Shown: positions 1,512 through 43,480 of the stretch, in pieces
Numbering within the stretch: position 1 is the stretch's first letter
Layout of the letters: every line of letters starts with the position of its first letter
Virus record (IMG/VR): IMGVR_UViG_3300046004_001116
Location: 1-64,000 of that record
Source of the DNA: a virus
DNA length: 64,000 nucleotides
Reading direction: 5' to 3' (one strand)
The notes under the pieces: generated by a model
Told to the model about the DNA's origin: nothing
The model's input: the letters and a program-made list of their open reading frames with translations, nothing else
The model's database searches: none
Program-made: the position numbers and the translations under genes

Positions 1512-2372
1512 ATGAAAACTATAAAAGACTGTGTTAACTGTATAGTTACACCAAATCTTACTGGAACCATAACTTACCTGGACTTTGAGCAATCAGCAAC
1601 AAGTCCAGGTGAGTTGGGTTTAACGGTAAACCAAAAGATTATTCAACTTGAGCCACAAAGTACGTCAGCAACTATATCTGATGAACAAGTCAAAGATCTT
1701 GCTGCTACACATATAGATGCTGTTGGTATGTTAAAATCTTCCTTAGTAAATGAAGATGATCAACGAGTTACAAAACGCATCTTTGAAAAGATGTGGAACA
1801 TGGGACATACTTCATATCTTAAATCTTTCACGCTGTTTCAAAAATGGGCAAATAAGTGGTTTGGTTATATGCCTGTACAACTTGTTAAGTCTGACGAAGA
1901 TCTAATAAGAGTAATCGTTTTACATTCAAATAGAATTGCTGTAAAGTCACGTAGAGGACCTGGTAATTTTATAGTTGTTTCATCAGAGGTTGGTGCTAGG
2001 TTACAAGATTCACCAAACTTTGTTTTTGAACCATTAGAAGGACTTGTGTCAGGTGGTACGTGTGTTAAGATAGGCACATTAAATGGACGAATAGAAATTT
2101 ACGTCAATCCATATATGAAATATGATGAATGTAAATTTATTATAGGTAAGACTACACAATCTAATGATCCTGGACTTTATTACGTAACTCGTGATGTAGT
2201 TGATGAACTAGAAGTTAAACTACAAGATCCTTTAAACTCAACTAAATATGCAAATGTTCGTCATGAATGGCTAGGCAAAATTGGAAGTAATGCGTCTGAC
2301 CATTTTTACACAGTAAGATATTCTGATAAGAAACACAACTTATGGAAACACTTAATCTCTAAATACTTATAA
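1512..2372 (+). CDS. Short paralogue of the major capsid protein (gp23/gp24-like)
   Basis: A 286-residue protein whose second half matches the capsid protein at 21129-23012. Shared stretches include RRGPGNF, LQDS, LGTL, YVNPYMKYD against YVDPNMKYD, and a closing PGL segment. The N-terminal half of a gp23 is missing. In T4 the vertex protein gp24 is a gp23 paralogue, so this may be a vertex or minor capsid subunit; a degenerate duplicate is less likely because the frame is fully open. It lies far from the other capsid genes and next to fibre genes. Confidence 0.6.
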   Translation: MKTIKDCVNCIVTPNLTGTITYLDFEQSATSPGELGLTVNQKIIQLEPQSTSATISDEQVKDLAATHIDAVGMLKSSLVNEDDQRVTKRIFEKMWNMGHTSYLKSFTLFQKWANKWFGYMPVQLVKSDEDLIRVIVLHSNRIAVKSRRGPGNFIVVSSEVGARLQDSPNFVFEPLEGLVSGGTCVKIGTLNGRIEIYVNPYMKYDECKFIIGKTTQSNDPGLYYVTRDVVDELEVKLQDPLNSTKYANVRHEWLGKIGSNASDHFYTVRYSDKKHNLWKHLISKYL

Positions 2373-14601: not shown

Positions 14602-15501
14602 ATGAAAACAACTAAAGCACAAAAACTTAGAGACTTACTAAGTAGTGATCAATTAGAATTTATCATGGAGGCCCACAGTGGGTTATCAGCAAAGATAGTT
14701 GAAGAAGCAGGGTTCAAAGGAATTTGGGCAAGCGGTTTATCAATGTCAGCTGTACATGGTGTAAGAGACAATAATGAACTTTCCTGGACTGATGTAGTGA
14801 ATGCACTTAAGTTCATGAGTAATGCAACCACAATTCCAATCCTTCTTGACGCAGATACAGGCTACGGAAGTTTTAATAACTTCGTGCAATTGCTACAGGA
14901 ACTTGTTAAGCATGATATTGGTGGAGTTGTCATTGAGGATAAAATCTTTCCTAAAACCAATTCTTTCATTAACGGAGAAAAACAACAACTTGCAGATATT
15001 GTGGAGTTCTCTAGAAAAATCACAGCAGGTAAAGATTACTTAAAATCTATAGGCCGTGAAGATTTTGTAATCTGTGCAAGATTAGAAGCATACATTACAG
15101 GTTTAGGCCACGAAGAAGCGATGAAACGTGCTATTGCATATGCTGAAGCTGGCGCTGATGCTATTCTTTGTCATAGTAAACTCGCAGATTCTTCAGAGAT
15201 TGATATCTTTATGAATGATTGGAAAAGAACTCTAGTTGGAGAAACTACTCCAATTATTATTGTTCCTACCAAATATTATAAAGTTCCAACTCAACATTTT
15301 GCTGAAACTGGTGTTTCATTAATCATTTGGGCAAATCACAACTTAAGATCTAGCATTAAGTCAATGCAAGAAACTACACAACAAATTTTTGCTGACTCAT
15401 CATTAATTAATGTAGAACAAAATGTAGCAAAACTTGAAGAAGTTTTCCGTTTACAAAATGCTGAAGCATTAGAAATTGCTGAAAAGAAATATCTTCCTTA
15501 A
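14602..15501 (+). CDS. pepM: Phosphoenolpyruvate phosphomutase
   Basis: A 299-residue enzyme of the isocitrate lyase/PEP mutase superfamily. It carries the PEP mutase signature EDKIFPKTNS (residues 112-121) that separates mutases from lyases, and the metal-binding DADTGYG (83-89). It rearranges phosphoenolpyruvate to phosphonopyruvate, creating the C-P bond, the committed step of nearly all natural phosphonates. It is the first gene of a five-gene operon whose other members draw the equilibrium forward. Length is normal for the family and the start is the first ATG after the late box. Confidence 0.95.
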   Translation: MKTTKAQKLRDLLSSDQLEFIMEAHSGLSAKIVEEAGFKGIWASGLSMSAVHGVRDNNELSWTDVVNALKFMSNATTIPILLDADTGYGSFNNFVQLLQELVKHDIGGVVIEDKIFPKTNSFINGEKQQLADIVEFSRKITAGKDYLKSIGREDFVICARLEAYITGLGHEEAMKRAIAYAEAGADAILCHSKLADSSEIDIFMNDWKRTLVGETTPIIIVPTKYYKVPTQHFAETGVSLIIWANHNLRSSIKSMQETTQQIFADSSLINVEQNVAKLEEVFRLQNAEALEIAEKKYLP

Positions 15502-15510
15502 AACTTTAGA

Positions 15511-16629
15511 ATGAATACAAAACAATTTGGTGATTGGTTGCAAGAATTGGAATTTGATGTCTTTACTGGCGTTCCATGTTCTTATCTTAAGTATTTGATT
15601 AACTATGCTTATTCTGACTGCACTTATATTAATGCACCTAATGAAGGTGATGCAGTAGCAGTTGCAGCGGGTGCCTATCTTGCAGGTAAACGTCCAGTGG
15701 TTCTTTTACAAAACTCTGGATTAGGAAATCTTATTTCTCCGCTTACTTCACTTAATCATATCTTTAAGATTCCTTTTCTTGGATTTGTTTCTTTAAGAGG
15801 TGGGCCTGACGATGAACCTCAGCATGAACTGATGGGTAAGATTACTCGAGAAATGCTTCAAGTAACACAAACACCAATTGCTACATTAAGTAAAGATCTA
15901 GAAGAAGCTAAAATGCAAATCATGGCTGCTCGAGATTTTATTGATGCAAATAAAATTCCATTCTTTTTTATCGTTGAAAAGGACACGTTTGATCCCTACA
16001 AGTTATCGATAGACTCAAAGCCAAAATATTCTAAAGGTACAAGCAAAACTTACGGTAAAGGTAATGAAGAATTATCATCAAGAACCGAAGCATTAGAAGA
16101 AATAGTTAGATCACGCGGTAAAGCTGGTGTTATTGCAACTACGGGAATGACAGGCCGAGAACTATATGAAGTTGAAGATCATGAGCAACATTTATACATT
16201 GTAGGATCTATGGGTTGTACATCAGCAATAGGTTTAGGAACTGCAATGTTTAGTGATAAGCCAGTCATTGTAGTTGATGGAGACGGCGCAGCACTTATGC
16301 GTTTAAGCGGTATGCCAATGTTAGGTCACGAAAAGCCGGATAATCTTTTACATATTCTTTTAGATAATAATGAACACAATTCAACTGGTGGACAGTCTAC
16401 AATATCTGCTATTATGAACTGGCCGCTATTTGCAGAATCTATTGGGTATCAAGCAATTACGGTTAGAACGTTAAAGCAACTTAATCATGCAATTGAAGAA
16501 TGGCATATGAATCCCAGCTTGACGTTTATTTACATGAAGATTAATAACACAGTAAAAGATAACCTTGGTAGACCTAAAGTAAAACCACATCAAGTTGGTT
16601 CACGTTTTAGAAACTACATTACATCATAA
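15511..16629 (+). CDS. ppd: Phosphonopyruvate decarboxylase
   Basis: A 372-residue thiamine-diphosphate enzyme. The catalytic Glu lies in NEGDA (E45), and the cofactor motif is DGDGAAL (256-262) followed by NNEHNSTGGQ (286-295). It decarboxylates phosphonopyruvate to phosphonoacetaldehyde and makes the unfavourable mutase step irreversible. Length matches Ppd enzymes rather than the larger acetolactate synthases. It starts 9 bases after pepM. Confidence 0.93.
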   Translation: MNTKQFGDWLQELEFDVFTGVPCSYLKYLINYAYSDCTYINAPNEGDAVAVAAGAYLAGKRPVVLLQNSGLGNLISPLTSLNHIFKIPFLGFVSLRGGPDDEPQHELMGKITREMLQVTQTPIATLSKDLEEAKMQIMAARDFIDANKIPFFFIVEKDTFDPYKLSIDSKPKYSKGTSKTYGKGNEELSSRTEALEEIVRSRGKAGVIATTGMTGRELYEVEDHEQHLYIVGSMGCTSAIGLGTAMFSDKPVIVVDGDGAALMRLSGMPMLGHEKPDNLLHILLDNNEHNSTGGQSTISAIMNWPLFAESIGYQAITVRTLKQLNHAIEEWHMNPSLTFIYMKINNTVKDNLGRPKVKPHQVGSRFRNYITS

Positions 16630-16632
16630 GGT

Positions 16633-17310
16633 ATGGAAAATTGGAAAAACATTTGGAACCGTAAACCAGCTAAAGATGTTTATGATCTGCAAGATCTTAT
16701 AAACGCAAATGGGTTTGACACATCAAGTTTGCTAGTCAAAAATCTAACTGACTATATTGAATCTGTAAAAACTAGAATGGGAATGAAGCAAGGTCAGTCA
16801 GTATATGAAGTTGGCTGCGGCTGTGGTTCTATTCTTTATCTTTTACAACAGATGGGTTTACAAGTTGGTGGTTCTGATTATTCTGACTCACTTATAAAGA
16901 TAGCAAAAGACTTGAACATATCTAATGATATTAAAGTAAGTGTTGCGAATGGTATTCCTGTTGAACCTAAGTATGATTATGTTATAGCAAATAGTGTGTT
17001 TCAGTATTTCCCAGATCTTAATTATGTTGAAGAAGTAGCGTGTCTTATGATGAATAAGTCTATAAGTGGTTCTATTGCAATCTTAGACATAAATGATTTA
17101 TCTAAGCAAGAACTTTATTTAAGTATTCGTCGTAAAGCAGAACCTGACTATGATGAAAAGTATAAAGACTTTCAACATCTATTTATTGACAAGCAATTTT
17201 GGATTAAATTGGGTTCTAAATTAAATTGGAAAGTTATCATAGAAGATCAAGACATACCAGAGTACAAAAATTCTAAATTTAGATACAACATATTTATAAC
17301 AAAAGCATGA
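16633..17310 (+). CDS. SAM-dependent methyltransferase in the phosphonate operon
   Basis: A 225-residue class I methyltransferase. Motif I is YEVGCGCGS near residue 61, with an acidic post-I residue in GSDYSDS. It begins 3 bases after ppd and overlaps the next gene by 4 bases, so it belongs to the pathway. N-methylation of aminoethylphosphonate, or O-methylation of a phosphonate, is a reasonable guess; the substrate cannot be read from sequence. Confidence 0.75.
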   Translation: MENWKNIWNRKPAKDVYDLQDLINANGFDTSSLLVKNLTDYIESVKTRMGMKQGQSVYEVGCGCGSILYLLQQMGLQVGGSDYSDSLIKIAKDLNISNDIKVSVANGIPVEPKYDYVIANSVFQYFPDLNYVEEVACLMMNKSISGSIAILDINDLSKQELYLSIRRKAEPDYDEKYKDFQHLFIDKQFWIKLGSKLNWKVIIEDQDIPEYKNSKFRYNIFITKA

Positions 17311-18035
17311 ACACAGCAATAATTTTAGCGGCAGGTTTAGGAAGCCGTTTTGGTGATATTACAAAGTACGTTCCTAAAGGAATGATTAAAGTAGGGAAGC
17401 AACCTATGATCCAATCCTCAATTGAAGCTATTCTTGAATTAGGATATGATGAGATCATAATTGTAACAGGACACTGTTCTAGTGTTTATGAAGAGTTTTG
17501 TAAAAAGTGGGGCAATGTAAAGATTGTAAAGAATCCTTTCTATTCAACAACTGGAAGTCTATTCTCACTTTACATGGGGCTAATTGAAGCAAAAATGTAT
17601 TACCCACCGGTGAATATTACAATTTTTGAGTCGGATATTATTTATGATAAGAATATCTTAGTAGATATGAAAGCTGAAAACTGTATGGTGGTTTCTGCAC
17701 CAAGAGCTGCAGGTTTAGGTGATGAATGCTGGACTCAAATTGAAGACGGAGTAATTACCAAGATTACTAAAGACAAGAATGATTGTGCAAATCCTGAATA
17801 TGAAATGGTTGGAATTACTAACATTACATTAAGTACAGTGAGCACATTGGCAAATTTAGAAAAAATGATTAAACTTTCTATTGACATGCTATATGAAAAC
17901 AATCAACAGGATTATGAATCCTTATTCACAGAAATGAATATCTTTAAGCCGTATGTAACTACTAAGTTATGGGCAGAGATGGACAACATCAAACATTTAG
18001 AAGATGCAATAACCAAAGTATTACCTAACATATGA
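17307..18035 (+). CDS. pntC: PntC-like CTP:phosphonate cytidylyltransferase
   Basis: A 242-residue nucleotidyltransferase related to LicC and PntC. The nucleotide loop is LAAGLGSRFG (residues 7-16) with a following KY.PKG, then NPFYSTTGSLFSLY near residue 81, and the metal-binding FESD near residue 109. In known clusters PntC activates 2-aminoethylphosphonate to CMP-AEP for transfer to glycans and is often fused to AEP transaminase; here it precedes the transaminase gene with a 4-base overlap. A phosphocholine-type cytidylyltransferase is the alternative, less likely in this context. Confidence 0.8.
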   Translation: MNTAIILAAGLGSRFGDITKYVPKGMIKVGKQPMIQSSIEAILELGYDEIIIVTGHCSSVYEEFCKKWGNVKIVKNPFYSTTGSLFSLYMGLIEAKMYYPPVNITIFESDIIYDKNILVDMKAENCMVVSAPRAAGLGDECWTQIEDGVITKITKDKNDCANPEYEMVGITNITLSTVSTLANLEKMIKLSIDMLYENNQQDYESLFTEMNIFKPYVTTKLWAEMDNIKHLEDAITKVLPNI

Positions 18036-19111
18036 AAAGAAACATTTTATTAAACCCTGGGCCAGCATGTACATCAGACGCAGTAAAACAAGCTGTACTT
18101 GATATTGGTGATGTTTGTCCTAGAGAAATAGAATTTGGCACTCTTATGAAGAATGCGTCTGAAAAGATTAAAACTCACTTAACATCGGATACTGATGAAT
18201 ATGAAGCTGTTCTTTTTACTACTTCAGGAACTGGCGCAATGGAATCTATTATAAGTTCATTACCTAAAGAAACCGACCGAGTTTTAAACATTGTGAATGG
18301 CGAGTACGGAAAACGTATTGGAGAAATGCTTGAGGTTTACGGAATAAGAAATAGCACATTGGATTTTGGTTATGATGCAATTGATTTAGACGTAATTGAA
18401 AAAGTATTGCAATCTGTGGAGTTTTCTCATATCTGTGTAGTTCATTGCGAAACTACCACTGGTGTAATTAACGATATAGAAAAGCTTGCGCAAATTGCTG
18501 CTAAGAAAAATGTTAAAGTGATTGTTGATGCTATGAGTTCTGCTTTTGCATATCCTATTAACATGAAGAAATGGGGAATTGATTTTCTTGCTTGCAGTTC
18601 AAACAAGTTAGTTCAAGGATTAGCTGGAATTGGAATTGTGGTTGGTTCTAAAAAACAAATCCAACGTTGCCACAAAAGAAACTTGTATCTTTCATTAAAA
18701 GACCAAGCTGATTACTTTAATAAAAGCAATCAAATGAGGTTTACTCCACCTGTTCAAATACTGAATGCTTTAGACGTGGCACTTGATGAATTAGCTGAAG
18801 AAGGATTGGCAAAACGTTACAAAAGATATGAAAAGCTAAATCTTTATATACGTAAGAAAATGGAAGCGTGTGGGTTCACTCCAGTTATTCCATTAAATGA
18901 ATCATCAATTATAATTACTGCATATCATGAGCCAGCTGGTTTTGATTTTGAAAACTTCCATTCTTATATGAAAGAAAGAGGTTTTATTGTTTATCCAGGA
19001 AAACTCACAGATGGCAAAAGTTTTAGAATTGCTAACATTGGCAATATAACATTAGATGATGTATATGAATTTTTAACATTAGTTAAAGATTATATGAAAA
19101 ACACAATCTAA
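18032..19111 (+). CDS. phnW: 2-Aminoethylphosphonate transaminase
   Basis: A 359-residue class V aminotransferase. LLNPGPACTS at residues 6-15 is the substrate loop, TSGTGAME (64-71) binds PLP phosphate, D166 of VDAMSS contacts the pyridine ring and K192 of SSNKLVQG is the PLP lysine. The family interconverts phosphonoacetaldehyde and 2-aminoethylphosphonate. In a catabolic operon it would sit with phosphonatase; here, with pepM and ppd, the direction is synthesis. It is the last gene of the operon. Confidence 0.9.
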   Translation: MKRNILLNPGPACTSDAVKQAVLDIGDVCPREIEFGTLMKNASEKIKTHLTSDTDEYEAVLFTTSGTGAMESIISSLPKETDRVLNIVNGEYGKRIGEMLEVYGIRNSTLDFGYDAIDLDVIEKVLQSVEFSHICVVHCETTTGVINDIEKLAQIAAKKNVKVIVDAMSSAFAYPINMKKWGIDFLACSSNKLVQGLAGIGIVVGSKKQIQRCHKRNLYLSLKDQADYFNKSNQMRFTPPVQILNALDVALDELAEEGLAKRYKRYEKLNLYIRKKMEACGFTPVIPLNESSIIITAYHEPAGFDFENFHSYMKERGFIVYPGKLTDGKSFRIANIGNITLDDVYEFLTLVKDYMKNTI

Positions 19112-21128: not shown

Positions 21129-23012
21129 ATGAACTTGATTAACGAATCTCAAGTGTTTGAAACTTGGGCTCCAATTCTTGAAGAAAAAACTGGAATCACA
21201 GAATCAAACAAATTAAAGTGGATGTCAACTTACGCACATTACCACTCATTAAATGAAGGATTTTCATATCCTCAAGCATCTTTACTTAATACTCCAGGTA
21301 TGGGTAACGTTGCGCCAGCTTCTACTGTTGCAGGTGGTGCTGCTTCTTTCTACGGTGCAGGTTCTCAAGGGTCTGGTGATAAATTCCCATCTCTTTTACC
21401 TTTAGCAATTCAAGTTGCTGCAAGAACTGTAGGATTTGACATTGTATCAGTTGTACCTATGAACGGACCATCTGGAGTATTAACTTACTTAGATTACGTT
21501 TATGCAGGTGGTAGAGATGTTAAAATGCCAGGTATTCCAAATACTACTGCTAGTAACTTTACAGATAAATTCTCTGTGTTTAAATTAAACACAAGTGGAA
21601 CTACTAATGTAAACGCAACTTTCAAAACTTATCTTGAAACAGCTAATACTGAATCATATGTAGTATTCACTAATGTAGTTCCTGCGGTTGCTCCTAACCA
21701 AGCAAATGCTCTTCTTTGTCAATACGTTGGTAAATCTCGTATCGATGGTTTCCCAATCTTTAGATTAGTTGGAGAATCTTCTAACGTAACTGTTTTAACA
21801 GCTCAAGACTTTACTGCAATTGAAGCTACTACTCAAAGTGTTTCTTACGCTCAAGTACTTGATGGTACAGCTACAGCATATACAACTACTGTAACTAAAG
21901 CTGGTAACACTTACACTACAGGTGCTCTTGCAATCTCTGGTGCTGCTGCAAGTATAACTACATACGCTGAATTAGTTAGAGCTCTTGAAGATCATATCTT
22001 TGGTTTCTCTGGTGCAGGACCACAAGATGCTGATCCTTACCAAGGTGATGGAACTAACGGTTTAACTTCTTACGAACCAATGCGTAGAGGTGTAGGTGAA
22101 ACTACTCAATACAGAACTATGGGTCTTACAGCATTCACGAAATTCGTTGAAGCTGAAACATTCCAAGTTGCTGCTACTGTAACAACTGAGCAAATTCAAG
22201 ATCTTAACCGTCAATACGGTATTGATGTAATCTCTATGATGGAAAATGCATTAGTAAATGAAATCTCTCAATCAATCAACAAACACATCTTATCTAGAGC
22301 GTTTGCATTAGGATGGGAAAATCACGTTACATTCAACAGTGCAGAAGGAGTTAACTTAAACTTATCTCTTGTATCTCAAGTTGGTACTGTAAATGCTCGT
22401 TTCCAAGGTGCTGTTCCAACATCAATTGGTAACTTACAACAACTAGCTTGTCCAGCATTTGCTAACTACGGTGGAACAACTGCTAACTTTGAAAACCAAG
22501 GTACTGTTCAAAGACGTATCCAATCTAAAGTTTTAGCTGCTGCTAACGTAGTTGCTCAAAGAGGTCGTAGAGGACCAGGTAACTTTGTGGTTACTAACCT
22601 TCAAATTGCTACTGCATTACAAGATTCAGCTCAATTCACATTCTACCCATTAGCTAACACAGTAAACCAAAACAATGGTGCTCTTTATCCATTAGGAACT
22701 CTTGCTGGTTTAACTATCTACGTAGACCCTAACATGAAATATGATGATACTCGTATCCTTGTAGGTCGTAAAGGTGCTGATGAAGAGCCAGGTCTTAAAT
22801 TCATGCCTTACTTAATGGCTGAATCAATCCAAACTATTGCTGAAGGAACTATGGCTCCTAAGCTTGCAGTTAAATCTCGTTACGCTCTTGTTGAGGCAGG
22901 TTTCCACCCAGAAACTCAATACTTAACATTACTTGTTAACTTGAAATCTGTTGGTACAGTTTCTACATCACAATACTGGGATTTACTTCCATCTGCTGCT
23001 ACTATTGCATAA
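21129..23012 (+). CDS. Major capsid protein (T4 gp23-like)
   Basis: A 627-residue HK97-fold capsid protein of the gp23 lineage. Features include GPSGVLTYLDYVY near residue 117, an EQIQDLNRQYGID segment near 359 and RRGPGNFVVTN near 482. It directly follows the protease gene, as in T4-like module order, and precedes a strong terminator. Codon use is noticeably more regular (GCT, GGT, AAC) than in neighbours, as expected for a very highly expressed gene. Confidence 0.92.
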   Translation: MNLINESQVFETWAPILEEKTGITESNKLKWMSTYAHYHSLNEGFSYPQASLLNTPGMGNVAPASTVAGGAASFYGAGSQGSGDKFPSLLPLAIQVAARTVGFDIVSVVPMNGPSGVLTYLDYVYAGGRDVKMPGIPNTTASNFTDKFSVFKLNTSGTTNVNATFKTYLETANTESYVVFTNVVPAVAPNQANALLCQYVGKSRIDGFPIFRLVGESSNVTVLTAQDFTAIEATTQSVSYAQVLDGTATAYTTTVTKAGNTYTTGALAISGAAASITTYAELVRALEDHIFGFSGAGPQDADPYQGDGTNGLTSYEPMRRGVGETTQYRTMGLTAFTKFVEAETFQVAATVTTEQIQDLNRQYGIDVISMMENALVNEISQSINKHILSRAFALGWENHVTFNSAEGVNLNLSLVSQVGTVNARFQGAVPTSIGNLQQLACPAFANYGGTTANFENQGTVQRRIQSKVLAAANVVAQRGRRGPGNFVVTNLQIATALQDSAQFTFYPLANTVNQNNGALYPLGTLAGLTIYVDPNMKYDDTRILVGRKGADEEPGLKFMPYLMAESIQTIAEGTMAPKLAVKSRYALVEAGFHPETQYLTLLVNLKSVGTVSTSQYWDLLPSAATIA

Positions 23013-32079: not shown

Positions 32080-32333
32080 CGGGAGTTTTTGAAACGGCCT
32101 ACTCTTTGAGGCACGTGATATTTGTACTTTAACAAAATTCACAGTATGGCAAGAGGGTTTTTGGAAGCGGCTTTAAGGTATAAGCAATGTATTTGACCAG
32201 AACAAAATCATAGTATAACTATCTTCTGTCACGTTAGCAGACCGGGTATGGCTACGCACAGTTTGGAAGTAATATGTGTATTAAACAAAACTTTCACCGC
32301 GGCGAAACGTTTCCCAAAACAAAGTAGTCGCAA
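32080..32333 (+). other. Gene-free stretch with a partial GAAGCGG element
   Basis: About 250 bases with no ORF or full tRNA. TTTTTGGAAGCGG at 32157-32170 resembles the 5' half of the AGCGG element, and CCAAAA near 32314 could pair with its TTTTGG, but the TAANATTC half is not clear. It may hold a degraded permuted tRNA or a diverged element. Confidence 0.3.
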
Positions 32334-32424: not shown

Positions 32425-32503
32425 AAATTGAAGCGGAGGTAAGAGTTACATCAACTTTTTATTGGAAAAAACAAACAAACACTCTTCCTAATATTCTCAA
32501 TTT
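32425..32503 (+). ncRNA. AGCGG/TAANATTC element, stand-alone copy
   Basis: Outer stem AAATTGA/TCAATTT, conserved AGCGG on the 5' side, inner stem AAGAG/CTCTT followed by TTACATC, and TAATATTC on the 3' side. The same pieces, with compensatory changes in both stems, occur at 40718 and around the two permuted tRNAs (33453, 36351). Here the inner stem closes only a 31-base loop. Confidence 0.65.
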
Positions 32504-33443: not shown

Positions 33444-33452
33444 AACAATAAA

Positions 33453-33593
33453 TTCCAGAAGCGGCAAAGAGAGTTACTTCGTCTGTTAAACGAGAGGTCG
33501 TAGGTTCGAGTCCTACTGCGTGTACCTTGATGGGAAACGTATAGCTCAGTTGGTTAGAGCGCTAAAAATCTCTCTCTTAATTATTCTCTGGCA
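33453..33593 (+). tRNA. Permuted tRNA-Asn(GTT) inside an AGCGG/TAANATTC element
   Basis: The 3' half comes first (33479-33524: anticodon loop CTGTTAA, T-arm GTAGG/CCTAC, acceptor strand TGCGTGT, A73), then after 10 bases the 5' half (33535-33562: acceptor strand AAACGTA, TA, D-arm GCTCAGTTGGTTAGAGC, G, C). Joined in the normal order they give a complete tRNA with a 5-bp anticodon stem CTCGT/ACGAG; the acceptor pairs 6 of 7. Flanks carry CCAGA-AGCGG...GAGTTAC upstream and CTCTC...TAATTATTC-TCTGG downstream. The two halves follow no normal tRNA gene order. Confidence 0.7.
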
Positions 33594-33597
33594 ATTT

Positions 33598-34033: not shown

Positions 34034-34092
34034 TGGGAGGTCGCATAGTTGGTTAGTGCTCATCTTCGGTGGTTCGAGTCCACCCCTCCCCA
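34034..34092 (+). tRNA. tRNA-like gene lacking the anticodon arm
   Basis: Acceptor GGGAGG/CCTCCC, a D-arm (GCATAGTTGGTTAGTGC) and a T-arm (GGTGG TTCGAGT CCACC) are intact, but only TCATCTTC lies where the anticodon arm should be. At about 59 bases it cannot decode; a deleted tRNA or an elbow-only mimic. Confidence 0.65.
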
Positions 34093-34097
34093 CTAAG

Positions 34098-34356: not shown

Positions 34357-34530
34357 ATGAAAACGCAAGTAACGGTATTATTCCGAAGCGATGATAAGAA
34401 TTACAATTGGTCATCAGTATTATCTAAAGAAGTAGGATATGAATTTGTTAAACTACAGAAAATAGAGAACACGGATAATCCAAGATGGCCAAAATGGTCT
34501 TTTATCATTACTTACAAAAAAAGTAAATAA
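34357..34530 (+). CDS. Small unknown ORF (57 residues)
   Basis: Begins one base after the tRNA-Met gene; a basic product (MKTQVTVLFRSDD... YKKSK) of beta-alpha character. Coding potential looks real, function unknown. Confidence 0.5.
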   Translation: MKTQVTVLFRSDDKNYNWSSVLSKEVGYEFVKLQKIENTDNPRWPKWSFIITYKKSK

Positions 34531-34562
34531 AAATGCAAAAGTGTAAAACTAACCGTTTTCAC

Positions 34563-34578
34563 GTGTATATATAATAAA
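34563..34578 (+). promoter_or_regulatory. Late-promoter-like box
   Basis: GTGTATATATAATAAA, matching the box at 29881 before the related tiny ORF. Confidence 0.5.
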
Positions 34579-34596
34579 CAACAAATAAATTAAACA

Positions 34597-36347: not shown

Positions 36348-36350
36348 CAA

Positions 36351-36498
36351 AATTAGAAGCGGTACATTGAGATACTTCAATATCCAAAACTGCCATTTGT
36401 TGGTTCGAGTCCAACCTGAGGTGTTAATAGCACCTCGGTGGTGAAATGGTAAACACAGCAGTCCCAAAACAAGACGCTCATGTAAACATTCTCTAATT
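36351..36498 (+). tRNA. Permuted tRNA-Trp(CCA) inside an AGCGG/TAANATTC element
   Basis: The 3' half is first (36383-36423: TCCAAA, ACTGC, T-arm GTTGG TTCGAGT CCAAC, acceptor strand CTGAGGT, G73), then the 5' half (36432-36463: acceptor strand ACCTCGG, D-arm GTG/CAC, GCAGT, C32). Joined in normal order they give a 7-bp acceptor, a perfect anticodon stem GCAGT/ACTGC and the canonical Trp loop CTCCAAA; G73 is the Trp discriminator. Flanks: AATTAGA-AGCGG...GAGATAC before and CTCATG-TAAACATTC-TCTAATT after. Confidence 0.78.
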
Positions 36499-36503
36499 GA
36501 ATT

Positions 36504-40349: not shown

Positions 40350-40412
40350 TTTTTAACAATTAGAAAAAAAGTTTAAAAAAATGTAAAAATGCAAAAACTA
40401 TCTGAAATGATA

Positions 40413-40426
40413 TGTATAAATATACT
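40413..40426 (+). promoter_or_regulatory. Late promoter with exact T4 core
   Basis: TGTATAAATATACT contains TATAAATA, the T4 late consensus. It lies at the head of the structured RNA locus, not of a protein gene. Confidence 0.6.
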
Positions 40427-40439
40427 ATAAATTAATTAC

Positions 40440-40828
40440 AATAATACGTTCTTACAATACTTTGTCATCTCGAAGCGGTCATCAGAGTTACATCAAACTA
40501 TAACTATGACAGCCAATTCTTTAAAAACGCAGTAGGTGTAAAAGCCTAACCGTTTTAGAGATCCTACCGTCTTTTACCTCTACAGGCCAGGCGGCTATCG
40601 CAAGATAGGAAATCAGTAGATCGGTGATCCACTTAATATCGGATCGACTCGCGCACGTAAGGCGCAATCCTTTGAGGAGAAATTCTCGGGCACTGACAAA
40701 TTGCATACAAAACATAACCGACGCGGAGATAGGAGTTACATCAAACTTTAAGCAAAATTCGAACAAACGCTCCTTTCTAATATTCTCGGTCATTTTGAAA
40801 TTTCTTGCCACATTGGCATTTCTATAAT
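40440..40828 (+). ncRNA. Structured RNA locus upstream of the Ro60-like gene
   Basis: About 390 bases with no convincing ORF. It contains an AGCGG...GAGTTACATC segment (40463-40511, closed by TGTCAT/ATGACA), a pseudoknot of GTAGG/CCTAC and GTAAAAG/CTTTTAC (40532-40577), a GCAA-capped hairpin CTATC/GATAG near 40594, GCGC/GCGC capped by ACGTAAG near 40655, and the full element at 40718. Candidate Y-like or other non-coding RNAs for the adjacent Ro60-like protein. Confidence 0.5.
40718..40790 (+). ncRNA. AGCGG/TAANATTC element, stand-alone copy
   Basis: Outer stem ACCGA/TCGGT, CGCGG, inner stem AGGAG/CTCCT followed by TTACATC, and TAATATTC. Compared with 32425 both stems changed on both strands (ATTGA to ACCGA, AAGAG to AGGAG) while loops stayed the same, which is strong evidence for a conserved RNA structure. 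Confidence 0.7.
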
Positions 40829-40867
40829 GACGAGTATCGCTTCACAGCTTTACTCGTCTTTTTTTGT
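40829..40867 (+). terminator. Intrinsic terminator
   Basis: GACGAGTA pairs with TACTCGTC, 14-base loop, seven T. Ends the RNA locus before the Ro60-like gene. Confidence 0.85.
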
Positions 40868-40889
40868 TTAATAACTAAAACCAATTATA

Positions 40890-42512
40890 ATGAGCAGATT
40901 AACACCTTATTCAGACAAAAGAACAGCTACATCTAATGAAGCTTATTCTACCGTAGTGGAAAACTACATGGGCGGAAACTCTTTTAACGTTTCTCCGCTT
41001 GCAACTCTTAAAATTGTAACCGCAAGTTCAATCTTTGGAGAACCAAGATATTACCAAGACGGTATAGGATCTTCTAAAACTATTAAGAATCATTCAACTC
41101 TTATGGAGTATGATATCTTTAGTGATGGGGTGAAAGATAACCGAAGTGTAGTGGATGTATTTACTTCTGCAATTGACAATGCATTAGACTTTGACTTCAA
41201 AGCAACATTGGATTTTGCATTAGAACTACGTACAGAATACTTCATGCGTCTTAACCCAGCGGTTATCTTTGTTCGTGCTTCACAGCATCCAAACAGAGTT
41301 GCGTTTAATGAAGCTAATCCAGGCTACATGAAATCTATCGGAAAAGCAATCGCTTTAAGACCTGATGACGTAACAAACCAATTGGATTACTACATGTTCT
41401 TAAACGGTTCTAAGAAAGGTTTGCCTTCTTTACTTAAAAGAACTTGGGCTGATACTCTTGAGTCATTCTCTAGATATCAATTAAACAAATATAAAGGTAA
41501 AAGTCTTATTGACCTTGTAAGAATCTCACACGCAAGTAACGATGATATTACTGAGTTAATGAAGACAGGAACAATTAAAGTTACATCATCTGAACAAACT
41601 TGGGAAAGTTTAAAGAGTGCTGGAAAAACTTGGGTTGAGATTCTTGACACAATTAAAGTTCCTCACATGGCTCTTTTAAGAAACCTTCGTGGAATCTTTA
41701 CAGAAATCAATGATGCGGCTATTGCGGCTAAAGTTCTTGAGCAATTGGAATCTGGTGTTTTATACGGAAAGCAATTTCCTTTTAGATACTGGAGTGCTTT
41801 TAAAGCAATTCAATCCGCGGACGTTAATCACTCTGGATTAATTAAAGACAGTCTTGAAAAATGTATGGACCTTGCGGTTGCTAACATGCCAAAACTTGAC
41901 GGTCGAGTAATGTCTCTTTGTGATAACTCAGGTTCTGCTTGGGGATCTCTTAATTCAGAATACGGTTCTGTTACAGTGGCAGAGATTGCCAACTTGTCAG
42001 CAATCATTACTGCACAACAATCTGCGGAAGGTTATGTAGGAGTATTTGGTGACAGACTTAAAACTCGTTCTATCTCTAAAAGAAATGGTCTTTTAACTCA
42101 GTTAAATGAATCAAACACTGAAGGAAGAGGAATTGGTGGAGGAACTGAAAACGGAATTTGGTTATTCTGGGATAAAGCAATCAAGGATAAACAACACTGG
42201 GACACCGTGTTTATCTATTCTGATATGCAAGCAGGTCACGGAAACCTTTACGGCACAAACGAAAGAGACTATGCAGAGTTTGCGCACAAACGTTCTAACC
42301 GATACATTGATGTACTTGCATTAGTGGAAAAATATAGAAAAACTGTTAATCCAAAAGTTAACGTTTTCTCAGTACAAGTTGCTGGGTACGATAATACAGT
42401 ACTTCCTGAAAACTTATACCGTGGTGCAATCTTAGCAGGGTGGACGGGTAAAGAATGTCACTATGCCGACGCTGTTATAAAAGCTTGGAATGAAATAGAG
42501 AATCAAAAATAA
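40890..42512 (+). CDS. Ro60-like TROVE/vWA RNA-binding protein
   Basis: A 540-residue protein with an N-terminal TROVE (HEAT-like ring) region of about 330 residues and a C-terminal von Willebrand A domain; the metal site is DNSGS at residues 345-349. Ro60 binds misfolded small RNAs and Y RNAs and, in bacteria, works with exoribonucleases in RNA quality control. Some mycobacteriophages also encode one. The upstream structured RNA locus and the tRNA mimics are candidate ligands. The C-terminal end is echoed in the next gene. Confidence 0.88.
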   Translation: MSRLTPYSDKRTATSNEAYSTVVENYMGGNSFNVSPLATLKIVTASSIFGEPRYYQDGIGSSKTIKNHSTLMEYDIFSDGVKDNRSVVDVFTSAIDNALDFDFKATLDFALELRTEYFMRLNPAVIFVRASQHPNRVAFNEANPGYMKSIGKAIALRPDDVTNQLDYYMFLNGSKKGLPSLLKRTWADTLESFSRYQLNKYKGKSLIDLVRISHASNDDITELMKTGTIKVTSSEQTWESLKSAGKTWVEILDTIKVPHMALLRNLRGIFTEINDAAIAAKVLEQLESGVLYGKQFPFRYWSAFKAIQSADVNHSGLIKDSLEKCMDLAVANMPKLDGRVMSLCDNSGSAWGSLNSEYGSVTVAEIANLSAIITAQQSAEGYVGVFGDRLKTRSISKRNGLLTQLNESNTEGRGIGGGTENGIWLFWDKAIKDKQHWDTVFIYSDMQAGHGNLYGTNERDYAEFAHKRSNRYIDVLALVEKYRKTVNPKVNVFSVQVAGYDNTVLPENLYRGAILAGWTGKECHYADAVIKAWNEIENQK

Positions 42513-42552: not shown

Positions 42553-42564
42553 ACTTAACCTAAT

Positions 42565-42577
42565 GATATATAAAATA
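42565..42577 (+). promoter_or_regulatory. Late-promoter-like box
   Basis: GATATATAAAATA, 10 bases before the chosen start of the GIY-YIG gene. It overlaps an upstream in-frame ATG (42563), which argues for the later start. Confidence 0.5.
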
Positions 42578-42586
42578 AACAAAATT

Positions 42587-43480
42587 ATGTATCATTACGT
42601 CTATAAAGTAAAAGATCCTATTACTAAAGAATATTACATAGGTAGTAGAAGTTGCAACTGTTTACCGTCTGAAGACACTAGTTATAAAGGGTCTATGAAA
42701 ACTTGGATTCCTAATAATTATGTTTTTTTAGAAAAAGAAATCTTACAAGAAGATTTTGAAAGCAGAGAAGATGCGCTTATCTTTGAAAGCAGCTTGATAG
42801 GAAAACATATTAAAGATGCATTAAATAGAAATTACGCTCAACCTGGACCAAAATTTCATACAGTGGGTAAAGACTGTTCTGGTGAACTTAATGGCTTTCA
42901 TAATAAAAATCATGATGAGGCTACAAAAATAAAAATTGGGCGCTCAGGTAATCTTAATGCTGCATTTGGAAAAAAGTGGATTCATAAAGACGGCCAACGA
43001 AAATTTATTAAGAAAGAAGATTTAAACACTTACATTAATGCTGGTTGGTCTTTAGGTAATCTTATTTTAAATAATCCACTTAAAGAGACAAGAATTTGGA
43101 TAACTGATGGATCTGCTAACAAATATGTTAAAGAAAATGAATTAAATTTGCCTGATGGTTGGAGAATAGGAAAGACTTATTCAAATGAGGCTAAAGAAAA
43201 ATTTGGTAACCAGCTTTCTAAAAGTAGAACTAAAGCTATACAGAATACAAAAGAAGTAACATCTAATACTGTTTGGATGAATGATGGCTTAAAGAATCAT
43301 CGAATAAAACTATTTAATGTTGAAGAATATAAAACTAAAGGATTTAATATGGGAAGACTAAATTATGAACCGTGGAATAAAGGCTTACCGCGAGTATCTG
43401 GCGCTGGTAGACAACCAAAAGAACCAGTGTATGCTAAAGCTATTATCGATGCTTGGGACTCTATTGAAAACAAACAATAA
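42587..43480 (+). CDS. GIY-YIG homing endonuclease with captured Ro60-like tail
   Basis: About 297 residues. The N-terminus YHYVYKVKDPITKEYYIGS is a GIY-YIG-type core (YVYK...YYIGS), followed by a conserved Glu in the FESSL segment; NUMOD-like modules follow (HNKNHDEATKIKIGRSG near residue 105). The last 17 residues, YAKAIIDAWDSIENKQ, copy the end of the Ro60-like protein, YADAVIKAWNEIENQK, although the DNA has diverged. Probably a homing insertion that carried or duplicated the 3' end of its neighbour. Confidence 0.8.
   Translation: MYHYVYKVKDPITKEYYIGSRSCNCLPSEDTSYKGSMKTWIPNNYVFLEKEILQEDFESREDALIFESSLIGKHIKDALNRNYAQPGPKFHTVGKDCSGELNGFHNKNHDEATKIKIGRSGNLNAAFGKKWIHKDGQRKFIKKEDLNTYINAGWSLGNLILNNPLKETRIWITDGSANKYVKENELNLPDGWRIGKTYSNEAKEKFGNQLSKSRTKAIQNTKEVTSNTVWMNDGLKNHRIKLFNVEEYKTKGFNMGRLNYEPWNKGLPRVSGAGRQPKEPVYAKAIIDAWDSIENKQ

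What the first reader, a model, noticed from the sequence alone, without database searches (positions are those of the whole stretch)
40440..42512. Ro60-like protein beside a structured RNA locus
Bacterial Ro60 proteins work with Y RNAs that imitate tRNAs and are usually encoded nearby. Here a TROVE/vWA gene follows a 390-base RNA locus with its own late promoter and terminator, and tRNA mimics lie within 10 kb. This suggests a phage-encoded RNA quality-control particle acting on phage tRNAs.
Basis: partly seen in the sequence, partly recalled or inferred. Interest (0 to 1): 0.7.

Follow-up and report, generated by a model that had tools for sequence, protein, structure and literature searches.

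The report
Phage Ro60 with five Y RNAs
A T4-like phage carries its own copy of the ring-shaped RNA-handling protein Ro60 together with at least five small partner RNAs (Y RNAs), two beside the gene and three hidden among its tRNA genes; phage Ro60-Y RNA sets are a known kind, but here the RNAs come in several builds, including an undescribed large one, and in related phages whole tRNAs sit inside them.

Summary
ORF 40890-42512 is a Ro60/TROVE protein by profile, predicted fold and complete vWA metal site. The 40441-40868 RNA locus is two Y RNAs in tandem before a terminator: a long one (40461-40700) and a minimal hairpin (40708-40797). Three more copies lie in the tRNA array (32425-32503, 33451-33596, 36350-36499); the last two enclose a circularly permuted tRNA (T arm, acceptor hairpin, D arm), the YrlA build. 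All share a core: stem 1, AGCGG opposite AAUAUUC, stem 2, UACUUC. The core is strongly covarying (0/500 shuffles), occurs on the coding strand in 43 of 44 Ro60 loci examined, and forms tandem arrays before Ro60 in Bacillus phage G, Rhizobium phage Y65 and Streptomyces phage BRock. Known kind, new variant: the long Y RNA has a conserved insert matching no Rfam family, and phage-G-like relatives embed intact, anticodon-bearing tRNAs in the Y RNA. Function (Ro60 adaptors that bring in host nucleases or tRNA enzymes) is inferred, not shown.

The parts
40890..42512 (+). Ro60/TROVE protein (540 aa): TROVE region plus vWA domain with complete MIDAS (D345-x-S347-x-S349, T419, D445 invariant in 23 aligned sequences)
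   Evidence: Pfam PF05731; alignment A6; AlphaFold2 model pLDDT 80 matches Ro60 of Thermus phage phiLo 9l5y, D. radiodurans Rsr 2nvo, Ro autoantigen 1yvp
40446..40453 (+). leader element ACGTTCTT, boxA-like (antitermination signal; the boxA link is inference)
   Evidence: G[TA]TCTT 18-30 nt before the first Y core in 23 of 23 leaders; background 5.7%
40461..40700 (+). long Y RNA: stems 1 and 2 with the conserved core, closing a ~170-nt structured insert
   Evidence: insert conserved in 14 aligned loci with covarying hairpin and helix; no Rfam match
40708..40797 (+). minimal Y RNA hairpin
   Evidence: CM R1 71 bits (training member); covariation in A1; fold
40826..40868 (+). intrinsic terminator of the Y RNA transcript (hairpin plus T run)
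   Evidence: inverted repeat, fold; not listed by the strict terminator scan
32425..32503 (+). minimal Y RNA between tRNA-Tyr and tRNA-Gln
   Evidence: 79% identical to the Ro60-side copy, E 3e-9; R1 62.8 bits (training member)
33451..33596 (+). YrlA-type Y RNA: stems 1 and 2 enclose T arm, acceptor hairpin, D arm (circularly permuted tRNA)
   Evidence: Rfam YrlA RF02553 34.3 bits over model 1-114, E 3.8e-6 (below gathering 69); R1 28.5 bits, E 1e-5, not in training; fold
36350..36499 (+). probable YrlA-type Y RNA with permuted tRNA insert
   Evidence: core, box, 3' motif and both stems; T arm and acceptor hairpin fold; R1 only at noise level (10.3 bits)

Best explanation
The phage encodes a Ro60 ribonucleoprotein set: one Ro60 ring and at least five Y RNAs. 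In each Y RNA the two ends pair into stem 1 and stem 2 around a conserved internal loop (AGCGG / AAUAUUC), taken to be the Ro60-binding handle; what lies above stem 2 is an exchangeable head (nothing, a permuted tRNA, or a ~170-nt domain). Most likely the RNAs are expressed as stable non-coding RNAs, bind the outside of the ring, gate its hole, and bring partners to it: the tRNA-like heads recruit host tRNA-recognising enzymes or PNPase, as YrlA does, so that Ro60 steers processing or decay of structured RNAs in the infected cell. Shown here: protein family and fold, RNA structure by covariation, linkage of the RNA to Ro60 across phages. Inferred: binding, partners, substrates.
For: Protein. 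RNA structure: sequence-only selection gives stem 1 4.22 of 5 pairs against 2.36 when arms are swapped (maximum of 1000 swaps 2.84) and stem 2 7.07 against 4.68 (maximum 5.24); A1 covariation score 0.530 against 0.219 +/- 0.018 shuffled and at most 0.184 when slid. Linkage: core plus box in 43 of 44 Ro60 loci, 1.13 per kb in the 1.6 kb upstream against 0.0066 per kb on the opposite strand. A model built from the window's group (R1) finds seven copies around Ro60 of Bacillus phage G. The Rfam YrlA model independently picks the 33451 module and the phage G module at L055:3716.
Against: No expression or binding data. The Ro60-side Y RNAs lack a tRNA-like part, so nothing shows what they recruit. 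The 36350 copy rests on structure inspection. Rfam YrlA hits stay below the gathering score. PNPase contact is extrapolated from Deinococcus and Salmonella.
Confidence: 0.8

Rival explanations
1. Same RNP, other purpose: the tRNA-like Y RNAs are decoys that protect phage tRNAs from host anticodon nucleases (competitive inhibitors), with Ro60 as their stabiliser.
For: Y RNAs lie inside the tRNA array; Hughes et al. 2020 propose the competitive-inhibitor role for YrlA (PMC7790460); phage-G-like relatives embed whole anticodon-bearing tRNAs in Y RNAs.
Against: The window's tRNA-like heads are permuted, attached where an anticodon arm would be; three of the five Ys have no recognisable tRNA part; no fragments of Salmonella YrlA were detected when tRNAs were cut.
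Confidence: 0.25
2. One reading: an RNA quality-control particle that inspects and repairs or removes misfolded phage tRNAs.
For: Ro60 and Y RNAs sit in or near tRNA arrays in many phages.
Against: Co-location with tRNA genes is also expected of any stable-RNA gene cluster; no substrate data; no RtcB in the record.
Confidence: 0.12
3. The upstream RNA is a cis-acting leader that regulates Ro60 expression, not a trans-acting Y RNA.
For: It lies directly upstream of the gene on the same strand in most loci.
Against: A terminator separates it from the gene; the same module occurs up to 8.5 kb away among tRNAs, and in several relatives only downstream of Ro60 (L027, L030, L040).
Confidence: 0.05
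4. The modules are decayed tRNA genes or repeats without function.
For: Three of the five sit in a tRNA array with many odd spacers.
Against: The minimal modules contain no tRNA part; compensatory changes across 27 sequences; strand bias of about 170-fold.
Confidence: 0.02

Closest known systems
Bacterial YrlA Y RNA (Rfam RF02553) with Rsr/Ro60, as in Salmonella
   Same: Encoded near Ro60; basal stem of paired ends with a conserved internal loop; permuted tRNA head of T, acceptor and D arms in the 33451 and 36350 copies
   Different: Scores below the Rfam gathering score (34.3 of 69); 5' core AGCGG instead of AUGC; two minimal and one long variant without tRNA part; spread over 8 kb in and beside a tRNA array; no RtcB in the record
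Ro60-Y RNA loci of other phages (Bacillus phage G gp540; Rhizobium phage Y65; Streptomyces phage BRock; Thermus phage phiLo Ro60 structure 9l5y)
   Same: TROVE protein; in G, Y65 and BRock tandem Y RNAs with the same kind of core directly upstream and tRNA genes around
   Different: The long Y RNA with the ~170-nt insert was seen only in the window's group; the phage G Y RNAs carry no annotation in the record
Deinococcus Ro60-Y RNA-PNPase complex (RYPER)
   Same: Ro60 fold; Y RNA as adaptor is the model adopted
   Different: No partner nuclease shown here
Vertebrate Y RNAs
   Same: Two-stem hairpin with an internal loop, bound by Ro60
   Different: The seven-pair helix with a bulged C and a three-nucleotide bulge (PMC4726728) is not seen; no sequence relation claimed

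Membership tests
Ro60/TROVE proteins | TROVE domain by profile | tested here: met
   PF05731 33.1 bits, cutoff 23; A7 profile hits TROVE chains 9l5y/9kop at 3e-30
Ro60/TROVE proteins | ring-forming helical TROVE part plus vWA fold | tested here: met
   Model pLDDT 80; Foldseek E 1e-15 to 9kop/9l5y, 5e-13 to 2nvo, 9e-11 to 1yvp
Ro60/TROVE proteins | vWA metal site DxSxS, T, D | tested here: met
   D345, S347, S349, T419, D445 invariant
Bacterial Y RNAs | encoded close to a Ro60 gene | tested here: met
   Two of five at -418 and -170 from the start codon; 43 of 44 loci overall
Bacterial Y RNAs | large basal stem formed by 5' and 3' ends, with a conserved core | tested here: met
Bacterial Y RNAs | a Y RNA with a tRNA-like domain of D, T and acceptor arms (PMC8394870 for the domain; the rule that each species has at least one is from memory of Chen et al. 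2014) | tested here: met
   33451-33596; 36350-36499 probable
Bacterial Y RNAs | binds Ro60/Rsr | not testable with these tools
   needs co-purification
YrlA (Rfam RF02553) | reaches the curated gathering score of 69 bits | tested here: not met
   Best 34.3 bits at 33455-33594
RYPER complex | Y RNA tethers PNPase to Ro60 | not testable with these tools
   no binding data
rsr-yrl-rtcBA RNA repair operon | RtcB ligase next to Rsr | tested here: not met
   PF01139 absent from the 85.9-kb record; the record may be a fragment

The most novel reading that the evidence does not exclude
Phages keep a kit of Ro60 adaptors in which one conserved handle carries exchangeable heads: none, a permuted tRNA, a ~170-nt domain matching no Rfam family (two subtypes, in this window and about 20 relatives), or, in phage-G-like relatives, an intact colinear tRNA with anticodon arm whose acceptor stem is fused to the handle. 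The last two heads would be new effector classes of Y RNA, and some apparent phage tRNAs (for example L026:7701-7773 and L028:7763-7835) would in truth be parts of Y RNAs.
Probability: 0.5. Interest if true: 0.72.

Novelty: new variant of a known kind. Interest (0 to 1): 0.52.

Why it matters
What Y RNAs do in bacteria is largely open. Phages with up to seven copies beside one Ro60 and several head types give a natural comparative set: the shared handle defines the likely Ro60 site, and the heads point to the partners. It also warns that tRNA counts in phage genomes may include Y RNAs, and it provides a covariance-supported core that links Y RNAs of the window's group, phage G, and by eye Rhizobium and Streptomyces phages, most of them unannotated or below Rfam's threshold.

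Tried and rejected
T4-type late promoter at 40415: the motif is not enriched on either strand. Housekeeping-type promoter by consensus scan: no more sites than in shuffles. Rfam identity of the long insert: none. A possible extra copy at 32164: folds no better than shuffles (193 of 200 fold as well), rejected. The many weak YrlA matches in the window other than 33455 mostly fall on neighbouring tRNAs and look like artefacts of tandem tRNAs resembling a permuted one. Bacterial genome pattern scan: nearly all chance matches when both stems are required. DNA-level search for the RNA locus in phages: only chance hits. Chen et al. 2014 and the Sim and Wolin reviews could not be read, so statements about them are from memory.

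Full report
WHAT IS THERE. The window is part of an 85.9-kb virus record of a T4-like phage: Gp23 major capsid protein and prohead protease, 31 tRNA genes between 30.7 and 37.9 kb. ORF 40890-42512 is a TROVE protein. The profile of its family finds solved TROVE proteins at E 3e-30. The AlphaFold2 model (mean pLDDT 80) has as best structural matches the TROVE structures 9kop and 9l5y (the latter titled Ro60 of Thermus phage phiLo), then Deinococcus Rsr and animal Ro60. The vWA metal-site residues are invariant in 23 aligned sequences. So the protein call is secure.

THE RNA LOCUS IS TWO RNAs. Between 40441 and 40868 a 33-nt segment occurs twice, 248 nt apart, 82% identical, and a third copy lies at 32430-32498 inside the tRNA array. 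Reading the same place in Ro60-bearing viral loci showed the same signature again and again: stem 1 ending in GA, AGCGG, stem 2 ending in GU, UACUUC, a loop of any size, stem 2', AAUAUUC, stem 1' beginning with UC. In the window the first unit (40461-40700) has a ~170-nt insert, the second (40708-40797) a short loop, and a terminator hairpin follows (40826-40868).

IS IT MORE THAN CHANCE? Three tests. (a) Modules chosen by sequence alone, then paired with their own or swapped 3' arms: stem 1 4.22 against 2.36 pairs of 5 (maximum of 1000 swaps 2.84); stem 2 7.07 against 4.68 (maximum of 300 swaps 5.24). (b) 27 minimal modules aligned (A1): covariation score 0.530, shuffles 0.219 +/- 0.018, slid structures at most 0.184; 14 of 18 pairs change on both sides. 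Relatedness inflates the shuffle test; the slide test does not share that fault. (c) Location: 43 of 44 Ro60 loci carry core plus box on the coding strand; density 1.13 per kb within 1.6 kb upstream of Ro60, 0.092 elsewhere on that strand, 0.0066 on the other strand. These loci were gathered by Ro60 similarity, not by the RNA; some are near-duplicates of one another.

HOW MANY IN THE WINDOW. Five: 32425-32503, 33451-33596, 36350-36499, 40461-40700, 40708-40797. Their pairing scores (26 to 32) exceed the 99th percentile of shuffled downstream sequence (25). A covariance model R1 from A1 gives 71 and 63 bits for the two minimal copies (both in its training set), 28.5 bits, E 1e-5 for 33446-33594 (not in training), and only noise for 36344 and the long one, whose inserts it cannot span. 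Rfam's YrlA model matches 33455-33594 over its full length (34.3 bits, E 3.8e-6) but below its gathering score of 69. The insert there reads T arm, acceptor hairpin, D arm; 36350-36499 has the same order by inspection. That is a circularly permuted tRNA attached where the anticodon arm would be, the YrlA build (D, T and acceptor arms, PMC8394870).

OTHER PHAGES. R1 finds seven copies in Bacillus phage G, five of them in tandem directly upstream of its Ro60 gp540; no feature is annotated there. Rhizobium phage Y65 and Streptomyces phage BRock also have tandem copies, with GUUGCG or GAUGCG as 5' core and GUUACUUC or similar as box, before Ro60, and Rfam YrlA matches in the same places. Ro60 lies among tRNA genes in many of these phages.

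HEADS. Of 71 distinct modules (a few low-scoring ones are likely false), most are minimal; a group has a T loop in permuted order; ten contain a colinear tRNA recognised by ARAGORN, with anticodon arm, inside the Y RNA stems, for example L026:7701-7773, which scores 58.9 bits as tRNA and folds as a cloverleaf on top of stems 1 and 2. The long head of the window is shared by 13 aligned relatives with a covarying hairpin (columns 258-272) and helix (163-217) and has a second subtype in L003, L006, L007, L009, L012, L037. It matches no Rfam family.

EXPRESSION SIGNALS. All 23 long-Y leaders examined carry G[TA]TCTT 18-30 nt before the first core, background 5.7%; in many it reads CGTTCTTTAACATA, which resembles the rRNA boxA antitermination signal (from memory, not tested). 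Thirteen of 24 leaders have a Bacteroidetes-type -7 box TAnnTTTG (consensus from memory) at -49 to -60, background 6%; the window does not.

MECHANISM. [quoted passage not shown] PMC7790460). By homology the window's Ys are Ro60 ligands with exchangeable heads. I put 0.8 on a Ro60-Y RNP acting as an adaptor platform, about half of that on PNPase as a partner; for the purpose, 0.25 on a nuclease-decoy role (which can coexist with the RNP) and 0.12 on phage tRNA quality control. None of these roles is shown by sequence.

NOVELTY. Phage Ro60 and phage Y RNAs are known: the phiLo Ro60 structure; TROVE proteins in jumbo phages (PMC7824862); [quoted passage not shown] and, from memory, Chen et al. 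2014 on more than 250 bacterial and phage species. New here, as far as I could check: the long head, the spread of Y RNAs through the tRNA array, and the colinear tRNA heads in relatives. Because the key papers could not be read, some of this may already be described. Hence a new variant of a known kind.

Noticed in passing
L026:7678-7798, L027:7854-7960, L027:7988-8106, L028:7742-7859, L028:7996-8093, L029:1807-1919, L040:8173-8279, L040:8397-8510: Intact colinear tRNAs with anticodon arms (Lys, Ser, Leu and others) lie inside Y RNA stems; ARAGORN calls them ordinary tRNAs.
   Followed up: partly
window 42563-43480: Homing-endonuclease-like ORF (phrog_314) right after Ro60; its last 16 residues (YAKAIIDAWDSIENKQ) nearly repeat the C-terminus of Ro60, most closely that of relative L008. 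It seems to have invaded the 3' end of the Ro60 gene and brought a copy of it.
   Followed up: partly
window 14602-19111: Neighbouring genes for PEP mutase, a TPP enzyme, a methyltransferase, a nucleotidyl transferase and a class V aminotransferase: looks like a phage-borne aminoethylphosphonate pathway.
   Followed up: no
window 1512-2372 and 21129-23012: Two different proteins match Gp23 major capsid protein.
   Followed up: no
window 34512-34592 and 40360-40438: Promoter-region-like repeat (AAATGCAAAA...GTATATATAAT), 72% identical, upstream of a tRNA stretch and of the Y RNA locus; similar sequence in L001 and L038.
   Followed up: no
window 34036-34095: tRNA-like element with D and T arms but apparently no anticodon arm, between tRNA genes.
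   Followed up: no
L031:10632-11091: GOLLD-like large RNA (96 bits, below gathering 150) overlapping a tRNA in a phage that also has Ro60 and Y RNAs.
   Followed up: no
Y RNA box in all modules, e.g. window 40487-40494 and 40735-40742: UUACNUC directly after stem 2; vertebrate and nematode Y RNAs have a conserved UUAUC near the same place (from memory). Possibly a shared feature, possibly chance.
   Followed up: no
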